64,000 bases of DNA from NCBI GenBank assembly GCA_913057205.1, contig CAJXNO010000013.1:1-64000 (forward strand), given 5' to 3'. The notes under the pieces are model-generated. The model worked only from the letters and a program-made list of their open reading frames with translations. It ran no database searches and was not told the DNA's origin. Source of the stretch: an uncultured Flavobacteriales bacterium. GTDB taxonomy: Bacteria > Bacteroidota > Bacteroidia > Flavobacteriales_G > Salibacteraceae. Positions within the stretch are counted from its first letter, which is position 1; each line of letters begins with the position of its first letter. The position numbers and the translations under genes are program-made. This document shows, in pieces, positions 2-23,176 of this stretch.

Positions 2-2119
2 GATACCGATAATGATACCATTCCGGATTACTTGGATTTGGATTCGGACGACGATACCTACCCAGATGAGATCGAAGGGCATGATATGAACGGCGATGGT
101 TTAGCCGATGCCTCGAGTCCTGCAAATACAGGGGTGTCCGGAGGTTTGACGGATGCGGATAACGATGGGTTACTCGATGGATGGGATAACGACAATACCT
201 TGTCGATCTACGATAACGGTGGCCTTACGACGTCTTCTCACCCAGATGTACATAATCCTGGGGATGACCGCGATTGGCGTGATAGTAAAGACACGGTTTT
301 AGATGGTATTCTGGATTTCTTGGATGTGGATGACGACAACGACGGTATCCCAGATGTGGTAGAATCCTTCGGAAACGATCCAGACGGTAATGAAGACGGC
401 GATGAGTTCCTGAACTGGTTGGATGTTTCTGACGACGGAGCTGGCGACGGATCCCTCACCGACTGCACCGACCCGAACGGTGACGGTATTGCAGACATCT
501 ACGACTTTGATCTAGACGGTATTCCGAACCACTTGGATAAGGACAGCGATAACGACGGATTAGCAGATGCCTTGGATAACGTAGATAACGGGTCTGGCGG
601 AAGCGTACTCACTTCAGGTATACCGCATCCAATGCACGATACAGACGGTACAGGCAATGCTGACTACCTCGATATTGATGCAGATGACGATGGTATCGTA
701 GATAACATCGAGGCACAAGCTACTACTGGCGCACCGTTGCAGGCTACTGCAGCAGACACCGACCTTGATGGCATCTCCGATGTGTTCGACCCAGATAATG
801 GAGGTGCGAACATCGTACCAGTGAACACCGAATCAACCGGTCTGCCAGACTATCGAGACACCGACTCAGACGACGATGGTGAAAGTGATTTGATCGAGTG
901 TTGGGATTCAATTGGTGATGGCGTAGCAGAAACGGTTCCAGCCAATAGCGATACCGATAACGATGGCTTGGACGATGCTTTTGATGATATCGTCGGTCCA
1001 AATGCTACTACAAACCCGAGTAACAACGGTCAAGATGCGCTAGACTTTCCTGATGCGGATCTTGGCGACAGTGAGCGGGATTGGAGAGAAGAACCCTGTG
1101 GCAATGGATCGGTAGGTATGGCCCCATTGAACACGACGACCACTGCTTCAACCCGATGCATCAACAATGGTTGGACCTACTACTATGATCCATTGGACCC
1201 GAGCGTTCTGTTGTTCGCCGTAGAGCACTTCCCCGCAGGTGGAAATACCAATCCGTTCACCTTAGAGATCGATATCACGGTAAGTGTTGATCCAGCTACT
1301 GGTGACGGCGTGTATTTTGAAGAGGACCTTGTAGAGGAACAGGCAACCTTTATTATGGGACGCTACTTCAATTTCGACATCACCTCAGGCTCATTGAATG
1401 GACCGATCAACGTATGCCTCTTCTATGAACAGGTTGATGAGGATACCTTGGTTGCTACAGCACAAGACTGGAATCAAGCCAATGCTGGAGGTACGTCCTT
1501 TGTCAGTGGATTGCGTTGGTTCCGTGTCAACAGCGGTACCTTCGATCCTAATTCTGCAGATCTTCAGCCTGCTGGTGTACAGAACGCTACGCAGCTCTTC
1601 CCAACCAATACAGGGTCAGAAGAAGGTTTCCGATTTGCGGAGTTTTCTACGAGCACGCTTACGGGCGGTGGACTTGGATTTACCGTTGGTGAGAACTCGG
1701 TGATTCTACCGGTTGAATTGATCAGCTTTGATGCTGTGCCGGTGCACAACGAGCAGGTGCTCACCCACTGGGAGACCGCCTCAGAGGTGAACAATGATTA
1801 CTTCTTGGTAGAACGTTCAGCTGACTTGAATGAATGGTCTGTTATGCACAAAGAGAAAGGTGCCGGAACATCCAATACCTATCGCTATTACGAGTGGTTG
1901 GATGCGAGGCCTTTGTTTGGCCATAGCTATTACCGTCTTCGTCAGATAGATTTTGACGGATCAACATCCATAAGTGATTTGCGGGATGTTTACTTGGCCG
2001 CTGGAGCGGCGGATGTGCGCAGTTTGTTTGTATACCCGAATCCATACACCGGTGCTGTATTCATTCAAGTGGATGCAGATGTAGATGTGACCCTCCAAGT
2101 AAGAAATAGCCTTGGTTAA
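2..2119 (+). CDS. T9SS-type secreted protein with thrombospondin-3-like Ca-binding repeats (5' partial, truncated 3')
   Basis: The reading frame is open from base 2, so the gene starts left of the window. The first ~360 residues are a run of Asp-rich motifs of the DxDxDG(I/L)xD type, as in thrombospondin type-3/adhesin Ca-binding repeats. A beta-rich region follows, and the end (VYPNPYTG, then LQVRNSLG) is the start of a type IX secretion C-terminal sorting domain. The frame hits TAA at 2117-2119 in the middle of that domain, although the same frame goes on coding for a normal domain end (next entry). As read, the product would lose the signal for export and cell-surface attachment. Probable role: large secreted or surface adhesin-like protein; the exact ligand is unknown. 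Confidence 0.85.
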   Translation, partial: DTDNDTIPDYLDLDSDDDTYPDEIEGHDMNGDGLADASSPANTGVSGGLTDADNDGLLDGWDNDNTLSIYDNGGLTTSSHPDVHNPGDDRDWRDSKDTVLDGILDFLDVDDDNDGIPDVVESFGNDPDGNEDGDEFLNWLDVSDDGAGDGSLTDCTDPNGDGIADIYDFDLDGIPNHLDKDSDNDGLADALDNVDNGSGGSVLTSGIPHPMHDTDGTGNADYLDIDADDDGIVDNIEAQATTGAPLQATAADTDLDGISDVFDPDNGGANIVPVNTESTGLPDYRDTDSDDDGESDLIECWDSIGDGVAETVPANSDTDNDGLDDAFDDIVGPNATTNPSNNGQDALDFPDADLGDSERDWREEPCGNGSVGMAPLNTTTTASTRCINNGWTYYYDPLDPSVLLFAVEHFPAGGNTNPFTLEIDITVSVDPATGDGVYFEEDLVEEQATFIMGRYFNFDITSGSLNGPINVCLFYEQVDEDTLVATAQDWNQANAGGTSFVSGLRWFRVNSGTFDPNSADLQPAGVQNATQLFPTNTGSEEGFRFAEFSTSTLTGGGLGFTVGENSVILPVELISFDAVPVHNEQVLTHWETASEVNNDYFLVERSADLNEWSVMHKEKGAGTSNTYRYYEWLDARPLFGHSYYRLRQIDFDGSTSISDLRDVYLAAGAADVRSLFVYPNPYTGAVFIQVDADVDVTLQVRNSLG

Positions 2120-2248
2120 TTGATGGGTACTGTGCAAACGCACGGAGTAGAAACAGCGCGTTTGGATGACTTGGCGCCGGGGGTTTACTTTCTCCAGCCA
2201 CCGGAAGGAAGTGCCTTTGATCCGGTTCGATTTGTGATCACGCGCTAG
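2120..2248 (+). pseudogene. Detached end of the T9SS sorting domain, in frame after a premature TAA
   Basis: Directly after the TAA at 2117-2119, without any frame change, 42 codons encode LMGTVQTHG, then LDDLAPGVYFL and FVITR, ending at TAG 2246-2248. This is the standard last third of a type A T9SS sorting domain (N-LG-Q motif, then the L-x-GxY-x-L strand, then a basic end). In the family the codon at the stop position is most often Gln (as in LGQ), so CAA to TAA is the simplest origin. The stretch has no plausible start of its own. A sequencing error, a real nonsense mutation or readthrough would all give this picture. Confidence 0.75.
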
Positions 2249-2279: not shown

Positions 2280-2579
2280 ATGATTATCTACAACGTCACG
2301 GTCAAGGTAGACCACGAAGTACATGATGATTGGCTGAATTGGATGCAGCAGGTGCACATCCCAGAGGTCATGGGTACGGGAAAATTTGTTGAACACCAGA
2401 TCGCGAAGGTTTTAGTTGACGATCAAGACGGCATCACCTACGCCATTCAGTACAAATGTGCTTCCATGCAAGACCTGGAAGCGTATCAATCGGATCATGC
2501 TCCTGCATTGCAGCGTGATCACGCCGAGCGGTACAAGGATAAATTCGTAGCCTTCCGCACCTTGCTTGAATTGATCTGA
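2280..2579 (+). CDS. DUF4286 family protein
   Basis: A 99-residue cytoplasmic protein matching the DUF4286 family by its start (IIYNVTVKVD), the central HIPEVM segment and overall length. The family has a dimeric alpha/beta-barrel-like fold and no established function; it is common in Bacteroidota. Its stop overlaps the rsmA start by one base (TGATG), so the two are probably translationally coupled and co-transcribed. No signal peptide or membrane segment is present. Confidence 0.85.
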   Translation: MIIYNVTVKVDHEVHDDWLNWMQQVHIPEVMGTGKFVEHQIAKVLVDDQDGITYAIQYKCASMQDLEAYQSDHAPALQRDHAERYKDKFVAFRTLLELI

Positions 2580-3346
2580 TGGCTGGACCAGTCAGAGCTA
2601 AAAAGCACCTGGGTCAGCACTTTCTGCGCGATGAAGGAGTTGCAAAACGCATCGTGGATGCGCTCGAAGCAGCTCCCTTCAGTACGCTGGTGGAAGTTGG
2701 TCCCGGAGATGGAGTCCTCTCTAAGTACTTGTTTGACCGCCATGATCAGGTGGAGTTGTATGATGTAGACCTCGAGTCGATCGCTCACCTCAAACAGCAT
2801 TTTCCGCTGAGAGCCGATCAGATCAAAGAGCAAGATTTTCTGAAAGCTAAGCTTCAATCCGATCAAGCTGTGATCGGCAACTTCCCTTACAACATCTCTT
2901 CTCAGATCGTTTTCAAAATCTTGGAGAACCGATCCGATGTACCCATCATGGTGGGGATGTTTCAAAAAGAAGTGGCCGAACGCATCGCCGCAGACCCCGG
3001 CAGTAAGACCTACGGCATCCTCAGTGTGCTCACCCAAGCATACTACCACGTGGAGTATCTCTTTACGGTTCCGCCACAAGCCTTCGAACCTCCACCGAAA
3101 GTTGATTCAGGCGTACTTAGAATGGTCCGAAAAGACCAAATTGAGCTCGATTGCGATGAGGAGCGCCTCTTTAATCTGGTGAAACGCTCGTTCAACCAGC
3201 GCCGCAAGATGATCCGGAAATCGCTCCGTGATCTTATACCAGAAGAGCCAACGGAGGCATTGCAGCCTTTTCTTACCATGCGGCCAGAGCAACTATCATT
3301 TAACGATTTCATCCTATTGACCCGTCTATTGGCTGAGGTCAAATAA
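2579..3346 (+). CDS. rsmA: 16S rRNA (adenine1518-N6/adenine1519-N6)-dimethyltransferase
   Basis: RsmA/KsgA transfers four methyl groups from SAM to the two adjacent adenines in the 3'-terminal helix of 16S rRNA, a late 30S maturation step. The 255-residue length is normal. Visible motifs are KKHLGQHFL near the N-terminus, SAM motif I VEVGPGDG at residues 38-45, and the catalytic motif IV NFPYNIS at 101-107, where Phe replaces the more usual Leu, as is common in Bacteroidota. The start overlaps the DUF4286 stop by one base. The gene is followed by a promoter and mgtE. Confidence 0.95.
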   Translation: MAGPVRAKKHLGQHFLRDEGVAKRIVDALEAAPFSTLVEVGPGDGVLSKYLFDRHDQVELYDVDLESIAHLKQHFPLRADQIKEQDFLKAKLQSDQAVIGNFPYNISSQIVFKILENRSDVPIMVGMFQKEVAERIAADPGSKTYGILSVLTQAYYHVEYLFTVPPQAFEPPPKVDSGVLRMVRKDQIELDCDEERLFNLVKRSFNQRRKMIRKSLRDLIPEEPTEALQPFLTMRPEQLSFNDFILLTRLLAEVK

Positions 3347-3375: not shown

Positions 3376-4728
3376 ATGCAGTTTGAACTGACCAAAGACT
3401 ACCTCGGAGATCTCCGTGCCGCAATAGAGCGGAACGATGAGCTTGCATTGATCGAGCTCGTTCAGGATCTACATGCGGCTGATATAGGCGAGATCCTCGG
3501 AGAGCTTGATACCATTGAATCCACCGCACTTTACAAGGTGTTGGATGCTGCTCGGGCTTCTGCTGTGTTGACCTACATGGAGGAAGACAAGCGGGAAGAC
3601 TTCTTGGCTTCCCTCTCCTCCAAGGAGATCGCTGAACAGTTCATCGATAACCTGGACAGTGATGATGCGGCAGACATGCTCAACCTCTTTCCGAAAGAAC
3701 AGAAAGAGGAGATCATCTCGCTCATTGAAGACCGCCAGCAGGCACAAGACATCGTTGACCTGCTTCACTATGAAGAGGGAACCGCGGGTGCCTTGATGGC
3801 CAAAGAACTTATCCGTGTGAACGTGAACTGGACCGTTTCCAAAGCCGTGCGTGAGATGCGTAAACAGGCGGAAGCGATCGAACATGTGTATACCGTTTAC
3901 GTGGTAGATGACGACGACCGCTTGGTTGGTCGGCTCCCCATTAAACGCTTGCTCATCACCCCATTGAAGACCAAGATCGAAGACATCTATGACGCGAAGA
4001 TCAACTCGGTGGGCGTAGATGAAGACCAGGAAGAGGTAGCGAGCATGATGGAGAAGTATGACATTGTTGCGATGCCCGTAGTAGACGAGTTGGGACGCTT
4101 GCAAGGGCGGATCACCATCGATGACGTAGTGGATGTGATCAAAGAAGAAGCGGAACGGGATTATGCGCTGGCTTCCGGTATCTCCGGAGACGTGGATAGC
4201 TCGGATACCGTCTTTCGGCTTACGCGGGCACGTTTACCTTGGCTGTTGATCGGATTGCTCGGAGGTGTGCTCGGAGCGCGTGTGATCGAGCTGTACGAAG
4301 GTGATTTACAATTGTATCCAGAGATGGCCTTTTTCATCCCGCTCATCGCGGCGATGGGAGGTAACGCTGGCGTACAGTCTTCTGCGATCATCGTGCAAGG
4401 ACTGGCCAACAAATCGATGGGGCTCTCGGGCATCTTATCGAAGCTTTCCAAGGAGTTCTTAGTAGGTCTGCTGAATGGTTTGGTGTGTGCGTTATTGATT
4501 TTCGGATACAATATTTTGCTTGGAGACTCGCTTGGACTAAGCTATACCGTGAGTGTGGCACTCTTAAGCGTAATCTTGATCGCAACCCTTTTTGGGACCT
4601 TTGTGCCCTTGGTTCTGGATCGCTATAACATTGATCCTGCTCTGGCTACGGGTCCATTCATCACTACTGTGAATGATGTTCTTGGACTGTTCATTTACTT
4701 CCTCATCGGACACCTACTTTACATCTGA
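3376..4728 (+). CDS. mgtE: Magnesium transporter MgtE
   Basis: A Mg2+-gated Mg2+ channel of the inner membrane. The 450-residue product has the family order: an N-terminal helical superhelix domain (~1-125) with the GTAGALMAKE segment, two CBS domains (~130-255), a connecting helix, and five membrane helices (~280-450) containing the conserved MGGNAGVQSSA stretch at the pore. ATG 3376 is preferred to the in-frame TTG at 3355 because the latter overlaps the promoter -7 element. The stop overlaps the next gene's ATG (TGATG at 4726-4730). In this family Mg2+ bound in the cytoplasmic domain closes the channel. Confidence 0.95.
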   Translation: MQFELTKDYLGDLRAAIERNDELALIELVQDLHAADIGEILGELDTIESTALYKVLDAARASAVLTYMEEDKREDFLASLSSKEIAEQFIDNLDSDDAADMLNLFPKEQKEEIISLIEDRQQAQDIVDLLHYEEGTAGALMAKELIRVNVNWTVSKAVREMRKQAEAIEHVYTVYVVDDDDRLVGRLPIKRLLITPLKTKIEDIYDAKINSVGVDEDQEEVASMMEKYDIVAMPVVDELGRLQGRITIDDVVDVIKEEAERDYALASGISGDVDSSDTVFRLTRARLPWLLIGLLGGVLGARVIELYEGDLQLYPEMAFFIPLIAAMGGNAGVQSSAIIVQGLANKSMGLSGILSKLSKEFLVGLLNGLVCALLIFGYNILLGDSLGLSYTVSVALLSVILIATLFGTFVPLVLDRYNIDPALATGPFITTVNDVLGLFIYFLIGHLLYI

Positions 4729-11803: not shown

Positions 11804-12337
11804 TTAGAAGCTAATGGCAGCTTCAAGTACTACGCCAGTGAAGGCAGCGCCTTGGAATTCTGAACCTTCCCAGCCAGAGCCGATGTAGCGTTGCTCAACA
11901 TACTCTAACTTGGTCATGATGTTCTTGGTCAAGAACCATCCACCACCTACGTTGAAGCGCTGGATCTCTTGTGGGTCTGCTTCAGGAATGTTCACTAGCA
12001 CTCCCGCAACATCTGTAGTGTAGGCACCATTGCTGATATCTTGGACCAAGTTGTAGCGACCGGCAACATAGAACTTCTCTTGCTCACCGATGCGGTAGAT
12101 CAGCTCTGCAGCGATCTGGTTGTAGTTACCGTCTGCCACAGGCTCAGCAACAGCACCCAATACTGTTTCATAGAATCCGAAGAACTCAAGTCCTTTGGAC
12201 TTCGTGAATACCGATCCCATGAAGGCGTTGTACTGACGGAAGCGCGGATTGAATCGCCCGCCGAAGTCGCTTGAACCTTCAGCTGCAGTTCCGATCACGT
12301 TGTAGTTACGAGATCCTGCTCGGTCGCCGTTGTACAA
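11804..12337 (-). pseudogene. C-terminal part of a porin-like protein after an in-frame stop
   Basis: This frame continues directly from the gene at 12338-13120 after TAG 12338-12340, with no frame change and no credible start (the next codon is TTG). It encodes about 177 residues of alternating hydrophobic/polar strands and ends in Phe (VVLEAAISF), the normal terminal residue for insertion of an outer-membrane barrel by BamA. The conservation of the barrel end suggests the stop is recent, is read through, or is a sequence error. Confidence 0.75.
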
Positions 12338-13120
12338 CTAAGTACCGTTGTCGTTGCCGGGAGAGATGTAGCCGCTACCGGTAATACGCAAGCGGAAATC
12401 ATCGGTCAACTGCTCATCATAGTCCAACTTGAAGTAAGGAGATGGCATGTAGTCATTGTCGCCAACGATGGTGCGTTGGTTCAGGTTACCATTAGAGATA
12501 CCCGCTAATGCGATGATACCCGCCATGCGGAACAAGATCTCTCCGAATGCTTCGGTAGTGAAGCCATCCATTAAGGAGTTACCTACAAATGGGTTGAAGA
12601 ATGCGCGTGCGTTATCTGATCGGCGGAAGTGTGCATCACCATAGTTGATCTCGTCCAAACCAACCTTGATGGTCAACATTTCCATAAGCCCTGACGCCAA
12701 ACCTTCTTGGATGAAGTCAAGCTTGTCGATCTGGATGTAACCTCCTTTTACCCATGCCTCTGTGTGGTGACGAGAAGCAAGGTAGGTACGCAAGTGCATG
12801 CGCAATCCATCTGCAAACTGAGCATCCAAGTTCAAGTTTGCTGTTGGGAGGTTAAAGTTGTAGCCCAAGTTGGCCAATTCTGGTACTCCAGCCGCCTTAG
12901 CTAGGTTGCTGTCACGGTCCCATAAATTGGTTTGTTGAAGCCCTTGAAATTGCAGTGCAAAATCACCGCCAACACGCACCTTCATGCCTGTGTACTCCAC
13001 GTCATTCTTTGGTGCTTCAAAGACATTCATGCCTCTGCTGTCATTGATCCGCCAGTATTGGATCTTGTCGTAGTCTGATAGTTCCTCTTGGGCCATAGCG
13101 TTGAAGCCCGTAGCGAACAT
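12338..13120 (-). pseudogene. N-terminal part of a porin-like outer-membrane protein, interrupted by TAG
   Basis: About 260 residues of beta-barrel-like sequence. ATG 13120 leaves only a very short leader (MFATGFNAMAQ) before the likely mature start EELSDYDK. A second ATG (13138-13136) lies 15 nt upstream in another frame, and one added base would join it to give a longer hydrophobic leader, so a one-base deletion near the start is also possible. The frame ends at TAG 12338-12340 and continues in the entry at 11804-12337. Intact, the product would be a ~440-residue porin. Two YceI-type genes flank it. Confidence 0.7.
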
Positions 13121-18799: not shown

Positions 18800-19468
18800 C
18801 TACAATGCTGCCAGCTTATTGATATCTGGCGGAAGTACAATGGACTTATCATGACCCTTTAGATGGCTGTTGATCATCGCTTGACCGATCTTCACCGTAT
18901 CTGTGATGGCATTCGGATTGATCCATGCAATGAGGTGCAGCAGCCAAGTGAAGTAATCGATAAAGAATTGATACAGCTTAGTTGAGGAGGTAACGCCCCT
19001 CTTTGGAATGATGCCTCCGGGTCTGAACATGTAGGCTTGTTTGAAACCGAGAGCCAACAGATCGTTCTCGGTCTTGCCTTTAACGCGTGCCCACATCTGT
19101 CTGCCTTCCTCCGTGCTGTCTGTTCCCACACCTGAAACATAGTTGAAGGTCATGTTAGGGTTGTTGGCGTGAAGGATTTGTGCAAGCGCTAAGGTCATGT
19201 CATAGGTCAGGCGCTTGTATTCCTCTTCTGATTTTCCTGCAGCGCTTAGGCCCATGGTGGCAAAGCAAGCGTCATATCCTTTCAGCTGTTCGGATAAGGT
19301 GGTGAAGTTGCTGAAGTCTTTATGGATGAGCTCATTGAGCTTCGGATGCGCTTCGCCCGTTGATCGTCTAACGATGACCAATACTTCTGTCACGGCAGGA
19401 TGGTCGAGGCATTCCAATAGCACACCTCGACCGATCATACCGGTAGCACCTGTGATGATGACCTTCAT
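18800..19468 (-). CDS. NAD(P)-binding Rossmann protein (atypical SDR / NAD-dependent epimerase type)
   Basis: A 222-residue atypical SDR beginning VIITGATGMIGRGVLLECL (TGxxGxxG). Its AAGKSEEEYKRLTYDMT, YVSGVGTD and FRPGGIIP segments are typical of small NAD(P)H-binding proteins of the HTATIP2/CC3 type. It lies one base after the SDR gene at 19470-20531 and is surely in the same transcript. Function is unknown; coexpression with a dihydroflavonol-reductase-like SDR under a TetR regulator suggests detoxification of a carbonyl or aromatic compound. Confidence 0.82.
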   Translation of the reverse strand: MKVIITGATGMIGRGVLLECLDHPAVTEVLVIVRRSTGEAHPKLNELIHKDFSNFTTLSEQLKGYDACFATMGLSAAGKSEEEYKRLTYDMTLALAQILHANNPNMTFNYVSGVGTDSTEEGRQMWARVKGKTENDLLALGFKQAYMFRPGGIIPKRGVTSSTKLYQFFIDYFTWLLHLIAWINPNAITDTVKIGQAMINSHLKGHDKSIVLPPDINKLAAL

Positions 19469-22747: not shown

Positions 22748-23002
22748 TTACCCTGACCAAGCTTCACGTTTGTGGCTGCCATCGCAGTACGGCTTGTTGG
22801 CAGAATGTCCGCATCTGTAAAGCGCGGTCATCTTTTCTCGGTGCTCCACCCGTCTATTGGAGAGTTTCACATCGATGTTGCCATGCACCAAGACGGTGCC
22901 ATTCGGAGTAACTTCAATCTGCACTCCGGCCTCTTCGGGCTGCGTAGGCTTACCATCTGTGTTGCGGTACCAAGTGAGGGCACCGGATGGACATTGATCC
23001 AC
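22748..23002 (-). CDS. CDGSH iron-sulfur domain protein (surviving 3' part of a YjdI-CDGSH fusion)
   Basis: The open part encodes 84 residues: the end of a divergent 4Fe-4S domain (DQCPSGALTW, Fer4_19/YjdI type) followed by a CDGSH [2Fe-2S] domain with ligands in YRCGHSANKPYCDGSH. Listed from its first usable start, but the natural gene almost certainly begins at GTG 23176 and is broken by a TAA (next entry). If translated alone it lacks most cluster ligands of the first domain. It is the last gene of the run from nitroreductase to here. Proteins of this type are small cytoplasmic redox proteins. Confidence 0.75.
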   Translation of the reverse strand: MDQCPSGALTWYRNTDGKPTQPEEAGVQIEVTPNGTVLVHGNIDVKLSNRRVEHREKMTALYRCGHSANKPYCDGSHKREAWSG

Positions 23003-23176
23003 TTGTTTCGTGATGCTTTCCGTATCCGCACCGTCTAGGTTGATCCAAGGCTTGCTTTTCGGTTGGAATACCGTTCCCAGCCCTCGCCAGCATTATTCTG
23101 AGTGAATGCAGGTATTTGGTTTCCACACAACGGTTACCTCGCCGTTGCTGTATTCTTTACTGATGGTTGAACTCAC
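23003..23176 (-). pseudogene. N-terminal YjdI-like half cut by an in-frame TAA
   Basis: In the same frame as the CDGSH ORF, GTG 23176 opens a reading frame with YSNGEVTVVWKPNTCIHSE, then TAA (23095-23093), then CWRGLGTVFQPKSKPWINLDG running into DQCPSGAL. These are the family features: CIH plus Cys, KPWI and CPSGAL. The stop replaces one residue between conserved Ser-Glu and Cys. The GTG overlaps the sulfotransferase TGA (GTGA), the normal coupling geometry, which supports this as the true gene start. Whole gene: 22748-23176. Confidence 0.75.

What the first reader, a model, noticed from the sequence alone, without database searches (positions are those of the whole stretch)
2090..2248. In-frame TAA inside a T9SS C-terminal sorting domain
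The frame to 2119 stops at TAA within the sorting domain, but the same frame continues for 42 codons with a complete, normal domain end to TAG 2246. The position usually holds Gln (LGQ), so one C-to-T change explains it. If real, the surface protein loses its export/attachment signal, or the stop is read through to control how much is anchored.
Basis: seen in the sequence. Interest (0 to 1): 0.55.

Follow-up and report, generated by a model that had tools for sequence, protein, structure and literature searches.

The report
Broken giant surface-protein gene
The stop codon is really there, but it is just one of several breaks in a dead or dying gene for a giant secreted surface protein that related species have also lost, each by its own mutations, so it looks like ordinary gene decay rather than a control switch.

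Summary
An in-frame TAA at 2117-2119 cuts a T9SS type A sorting domain, the frame runs 42 more codons to TAG 2246-2248, and the codon is Gln in 9 of 11 congener orthologues. The wider locus decides what it means. The window starts at a contig end inside the gene. The 5' part lies at the end of another contig of the same genome (C42), next to leuS as in relatives. That part carries a TGA, a frameshift and a TAA. The CTD stop is therefore one of at least four inactivating lesions, and a product could not reach this codon even if the TAA were read through. Over the leuS-ksgA locus of 12 genus members, one copy is fully intact, one is open as far as its contig shows, two have a single 1-base slip in a G run, and eight are broken at different places, mostly with large losses. 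Flanking genes in the same loci have no lesions. In the intact clade the gene is under strong purifying selection (dN/dS about 0.04). Other genes of this genome that share the pre-CTD module are broken too. Most likely this is parallel pseudogenisation of a giant T9SS surface protein, as known for Brucella adhesins. Read-through control is not supported.

The parts
2..2119 (+). 3' part of a giant surface-protein gene (Asp-rich DxDxDG repeats, conserved pre-CTD module, start of the sorting domain), open to the TAA; its 5' part is on contig C42 of the same genome
   Evidence: 65% identity over 741 aligned codons to residues 1115-1896 of the intact 1898-aa orthologue in G007
2030..2197 (+). T9SS type A C-terminal sorting domain (TIGR04183), interrupted by the stop
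   Evidence: over the curated cut-off only when read across the stop; no match for the truncated protein
2117..2119 (+). in-frame TAA in place of a Gln codon (G007 codon 1857)
2120..2248 (+). remaining 42 codons of the sorting domain and the original TAG stop
2280..2579 (+). intact downstream gene (99 aa; DUF4286-like, name recalled), conserved neighbour in 10 of the 10 loci where it was in the stretch
   Evidence: one full-length match, no stop, in each
2579..3346 (+). intact ksgA-like gene (name recalled), syntenic anchor and lesion control
3376..4728 (+). intact mgtE-like gene (name recalled), syntenic anchor and lesion control

Best explanation
The TAA is one of several inactivating mutations in a pseudogene of a giant (about 1,900 aa in the intact relative) T9SS-exported surface protein. 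The protein has an AgmC-like N-terminal part, calcium-binding-type Asp-rich repeats, a conserved pre-CTD module and a type A sorting domain. Shown: the in-frame TAA; three more lesions (TGA, frameshift, TAA) in the 5' part of the same gene on contig C42; synteny leuS - giant gene - small gene - ksgA - mgtE in relatives; lesions at different places in most congeners; intact flanking genes. Inferred: that the C42 and C13 contig ends are the two halves of one gene (the middle, about G007 residues 635-1114, is not in the assembly); that no functional protein is made; that the lesions were separate losses; that the cause is relaxed or intermittent selection on a costly, dispensable surface protein.
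For: 5' half at the end of C42, divergent from leuS exactly as in G007, with TGA for W148, +1 frameshift at 582, TAA for Y630. TAA for Q1857 in C13. Orthologous locus in relatives: G007 intact, 1898 aa; G008 open over the 818 aligned codons its contig shows; G003 and G009 one 1-base loss in a G run; G001, G004, G005, G006, G011, G012 frameshift or stop, most with loss of the N-terminal part; G010 only a C-terminal remnant. No two lesions coincide. Control: leuS, the 99-aa gene, ksgA and mgtE in the same stretches, 36 gene copies (33 without the window's own), 0 stops, 0 frame changes. Background: 2 interior stops in 13,735 aligned codons of the window's other genes against 4 lesions in 1,325 codons here, Poisson p about 5e-5. 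Purifying selection between G007 and G009: dN/dS 0.043, like neighbours at 0.024-0.054. Paralogues with the same module in this genome are broken as well, by stops and by frameshifts.
Against: G007, with the intact giant gene, itself shows 2 interior stops in other genes of the syntenic block, so a low background of errors or decay exists everywhere. The two contigs are not physically joined. The lost frame is still well conserved after the stop, so the loss is recent or the gene was lost elsewhere first.
Confidence: 0.9

Rival explanations
1. The stop is an assembly or sequencing error in a working gene.
For: No reads; the genome is a draft in 68 contigs; other single in-frame stops occur in otherwise well conserved genes of the window and of G007. 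The gene lies at a contig end in repeat-rich sequence.
Against: The background is about 2 per 13,735 codons, far below 4 per 1,325, and the lesions are of four separate kinds and places. Essential neighbours show none in 36 copies. Most congeners are independently broken at the same locus, several with deletions that are not base-call errors.
Confidence: 0.07
2. Programmed read-through of the TAA sets how much protein is anchored.
For: The frame after the stop is intact and conserved for 42 codons.
Against: Upstream TGA, frameshift and TAA in the same gene. All three stop codons replace different residues (W, Y, Q) in this gene, so no single decoding rule fits. No relative has a stop at this codon.
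Confidence: 0.01
3. On/off switching or within-population polymorphism: the gene is repeatedly silenced by slips and stops and kept intact in other cells.
For: In G009 and G003 the only lesion is a 1-base loss in a run of G although G007-G009 dN/dS is 0.043. Selection maintains the gene somewhere in the genus.
Against: The G-run slips may be base-call errors. The window's copy is broken by substitutions and a frameshift that do not revert easily, and no repeat tract sits at the TAA.
Confidence: 0.12

Closest known systems
Type Va autotransporter adhesins BmaA/BmaB/BmaC of Brucella (PMC8111173, passages read)
   Same: large surface adhesins at conserved syntenic loci, broken by different stops and frameshifts in different species, described as parallel pseudogenisation
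   Different: another secretion route (autotransporter, not T9SS), a host-bound pathogen genus, and very close species; here the species are distant (about 50-92% protein identity) and the genomes unnamed
T9SS cargo with type A sorting domain (TIGR04183 / PF18962)
   Same: read across the stop, the domain passes the NCBIfam cut-off, and the intact G007 protein ends with it
   Different: in the window the domain is cut after about 29 residues and the truncated product no longer matches
AgmC-type N-terminal domain (NCBIfam NF047640, adventurous gliding motility)
   Same: residues 47-405 of the intact G007 protein match at 179 bits
   Different: below the curated cut-off of 275 bits, so not a member by that model

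Membership tests
T9SS cargo, type A sorting domain | C-terminal domain over the TIGR04183 cut-off (23 bits) | tested here: inconclusive
   met at 30.1 bits only when the stop is read through; no match for the protein as it stands; the intact orthologue G007 meets it at 34.8 bits
T9SS cargo, type A sorting domain | N-terminal signal for Sec export | tested here: inconclusive
   the C42 part begins MVLCFKGLYRALFLLVMMFLLSGGFLHAQ, judged a signal peptide by eye only; no predictor was run
T9SS cargo, type A sorting domain | T9SS present in the genome | tested here: met
   SprA family PF14349 over its cut-off in an uninterrupted 2465-codon frame; 97 rows of TIGR04183 marked over the cut-off in the genome, one of them the window's. 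Other T9SS genes were not searched
Pseudogene | two or more independent inactivating lesions relative to intact orthologues | tested here: met
   three stops and one frameshift over 1,325 aligned codons
Pseudogene | no functional product | not testable with these tools
   needs proteomics or localisation
Programmed stop read-through | stop conserved in relatives with conserved coding after it | tested here: not met
   0 of 11 congener orthologues have a stop at this codon
AgmC N-terminal domain | score over the NF047640 cut-off (275 bits) | tested here: not met
   179 bits in the intact G007 protein

The most novel reading that the evidence does not exclude
In this genus the giant T9SS surface protein between leuS and ksgA is kept by strong purifying selection in some lineages but actively selected against in others (for example as a receptor for phage or a target of predators). 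Loss then recurs by independent lesions, sometimes first as reversible G-run slips, while the T9SS and most other cargo stay intact. In the window's species a whole class of module-bearing cargo is being shed at once.
Probability: 0.2. Interest if true: 0.45.

Novelty: new member of a known kind. Interest (0 to 1): 0.2.

Why it matters
It shows that a stop codon which looks like a possible control point is better explained by decay once the whole gene and its relatives are read. The locus is also a tidy example of repeated, independent loss of one giant exported protein with intact neighbours as an internal control, and could be used to ask why costly surface proteins are kept in some species and dropped in others.

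Tried and rejected
Rejected: read-through or recoding (three kinds of stop replacing W, Y and Q in this gene, plus a frameshift). Rejected as sole cause: sequencing error (background and flanking-gene controls), though single lesions, above all the G-run slips in G009 and G003, may be errors.

A hexamer coding-potential track on five short CTD loci (L083-L087) was too noisy to use. Promoter and terminator patterns near the stop: 0 found. Literature searches found no paper describing this locus; only the held library was searched.

Limits: the module comparison across the genus (tested) counts in-frame stops only, not frameshifts, and used rows with E at most 1e-6 and query start at most 30; three rows with later starts were dropped, and rows above 1e-6 were not used. 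The Poisson test for the genus was run for 11 lesions; a recount gives 12 in 12,398 aligned codons, or 10 without the two G-run slips. The background rate comes from one pair of genomes. Lesion counts use G007 as the reference, so copies that differ from it in the N-terminal part (G004, G005, G008, G010) are only partly comparable. C33 of this genome (L175) was fetched and not used; L190-L192 were fetched and not analysed further.

Full report
Observation. The frame from the start of the window ends at TAA 2117-2119, and the same frame continues 42 codons to TAG 2246-2248. Read across the stop, the end is a T9SS type A sorting domain (TIGR04183, 30.1 bits, cut-off 23; PF18962 25.3 bits, just under its cut-off of 27). 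Without the part after the stop there is no match. Among 11 congener orthologues the codon is Gln in 9 (6 CAA, 3 CAG) and Thr in 2. A single C-to-T change explains the TAA. In the own genome, 97 rows of TIGR04183 are marked over the cut-off and only the window's has a stop inside the matched stretch.

The window is only half a gene. The window starts at the first base of contig C13 (72,503 bases) of a 68-contig, 2.83 Mb assembly, inside the gene. The intact orthologue in genome G007 is 1898 aa. Its N-terminal half, searched in the window's own genome, hits the end of contig C42 at 75-78% identity. There the gene lies divergent from leuS, as in G007. A frameshift-aware alignment gives these lesions in the window's genome, in G007 numbering: TGA for W148, a +1 frameshift at 582, TAA for Y630 on C42, and TAA for Q1857 on C13, with in-frame gaps of 46 and 36 aa. 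The middle (about 635-1114) is not assembled. If so, the TAA in the sorting domain is at least the fourth lesion and has no bearing on export by itself.

Relatives. The locus leuS - giant gene - 99-aa gene - ksgA - mgtE was read in 12 of the 13 genus members searched, counting the window's own; in G002 (78% complete) no ksgA was found. Gene names are recalled from the sequences. State of the giant gene: G007 intact. G008 open over what its contig shows. G009 and G003 one 1-base loss in a run of six G, where a seventh G would keep the frame, so either slippage or a base-call error. G005 frameshift at 463. G004 frameshift at 1703 and N-terminal pieces in several frames. G001 aligned only from 851, with TAA at 1214. 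G011 only from 1186, with a frameshift at 1336. G006 only from 1399, with TAG at about 1572. G012 only 1637-1888, with TAG at 1750. G010 only a C-terminal remnant in line with 1745-1880. No lesion position is shared, which points to separate events. The total is 12 stops or frameshifts in 12,398 aligned codons (recount, G010 not included).

Controls. In the same stretches leuS, the 99-aa gene, ksgA and mgtE gave 36 gene copies (33 without the window's own), each a single match with no stop; not every gene lay in every stretch. These are conserved genes, so I also compared the other genes of the window with the syntenic blocks of G007 and G009. G007 proteins on the window: 2 interior stops in 43 genes and 13,735 codons, no frame change. 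G009 proteins on the window: 42 genes, 14,328 codons, 1 interior stop, which lies on the strand opposite to ksgA and is a shadow-frame match, not a gene. Window proteins on G007: 2 interior stops in 42 genes. G007 proteins on G009: 1 stop and 2 frame changes in 47 genes. So every genome has a low background of lesions or errors, but 4 in 1,325 codons is well above it (expected 0.19, Poisson p about 5e-5). The genus-wide test, run for 11 lesions, gave p about 3e-6 with the same rough background.

Selection. Between G007 and G009 the giant gene has dN/dS 0.043 over 1,895 codons, close to its neighbours (0.024-0.054); the module and CTD region is looser at 0.116. So the protein is maintained in that clade, which argues for real function there and against it being junk throughout the genus.

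Same-genome paralogues. A 181-aa query (module and CTD of the intact G007 protein) was searched in all 13 genus genomes. With E at most 1e-6 and query start at most 30, 6 of 7 matches in the window's genome hold an in-frame stop, against 3 of 49 in the others (Fisher p 1.7e-5; without the window's gene 5 of 6, p 9e-5). Open frames around five of them show further stops and frame changes, so these too look like pseudogenes. SprA is intact (2465 codons), so the secretion system itself does not look lost, though only SprA was tested.

Meaning. In P. gingivalis, removing two C-terminal residues of RgpB blocks export, and the signal of HBP35 lies in its last 22 residues (PMC11285876, passages). Losing 42 residues would therefore abolish export if a protein were made. 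Parallel pseudogenisation of large adhesins at conserved loci is described for Brucella (PMC8111173, passages), and confirmed or possible breaks in giant surface proteins for Apilactobacillus (PMC12863079, one passage). The find is a T9SS example of that known kind. Why the gene is lost so often (relaxed selection, or active selection against a surface target) is not shown by these data.

Noticed in passing
window 11807-13105, minus strand, stop at 12338-12340: A second single in-frame stop, in a porin-like outer membrane protein gene (description by eye; no NCBIfam or Pfam family): 61% identity to the G007 protein over 444 columns on both sides, stop at a Tyr.
   Followed up: partly
window 22754-23176, minus strand, stop at 23093-23095: A single in-frame stop (Lys in G007) in a 142-aa cysteine-rich protein, 63% identical on both sides; the same gene is split by a frame change in G009.
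   Followed up: partly
G000 contigs C4, C7, C14, C24, C31 (L079-L082, L088): Other genes with the same pre-CTD module in the window's genome carry in-frame stops and frame changes, far more often than in congeners.
   Followed up: partly
L070 (G009) near G007 codon 80; L071 (G003) near codon 300: The only lesion of each giant gene is a 1-base loss in a run of six G; phase variation or base-call error cannot be told apart without reads.
   Followed up: partly
L178 (about 18832-18834, minus) and L181 (ORF from 18423, plus): G007, which has the intact giant gene, has in-frame stops in two other genes that are intact in the window and in G009.
   Followed up: no
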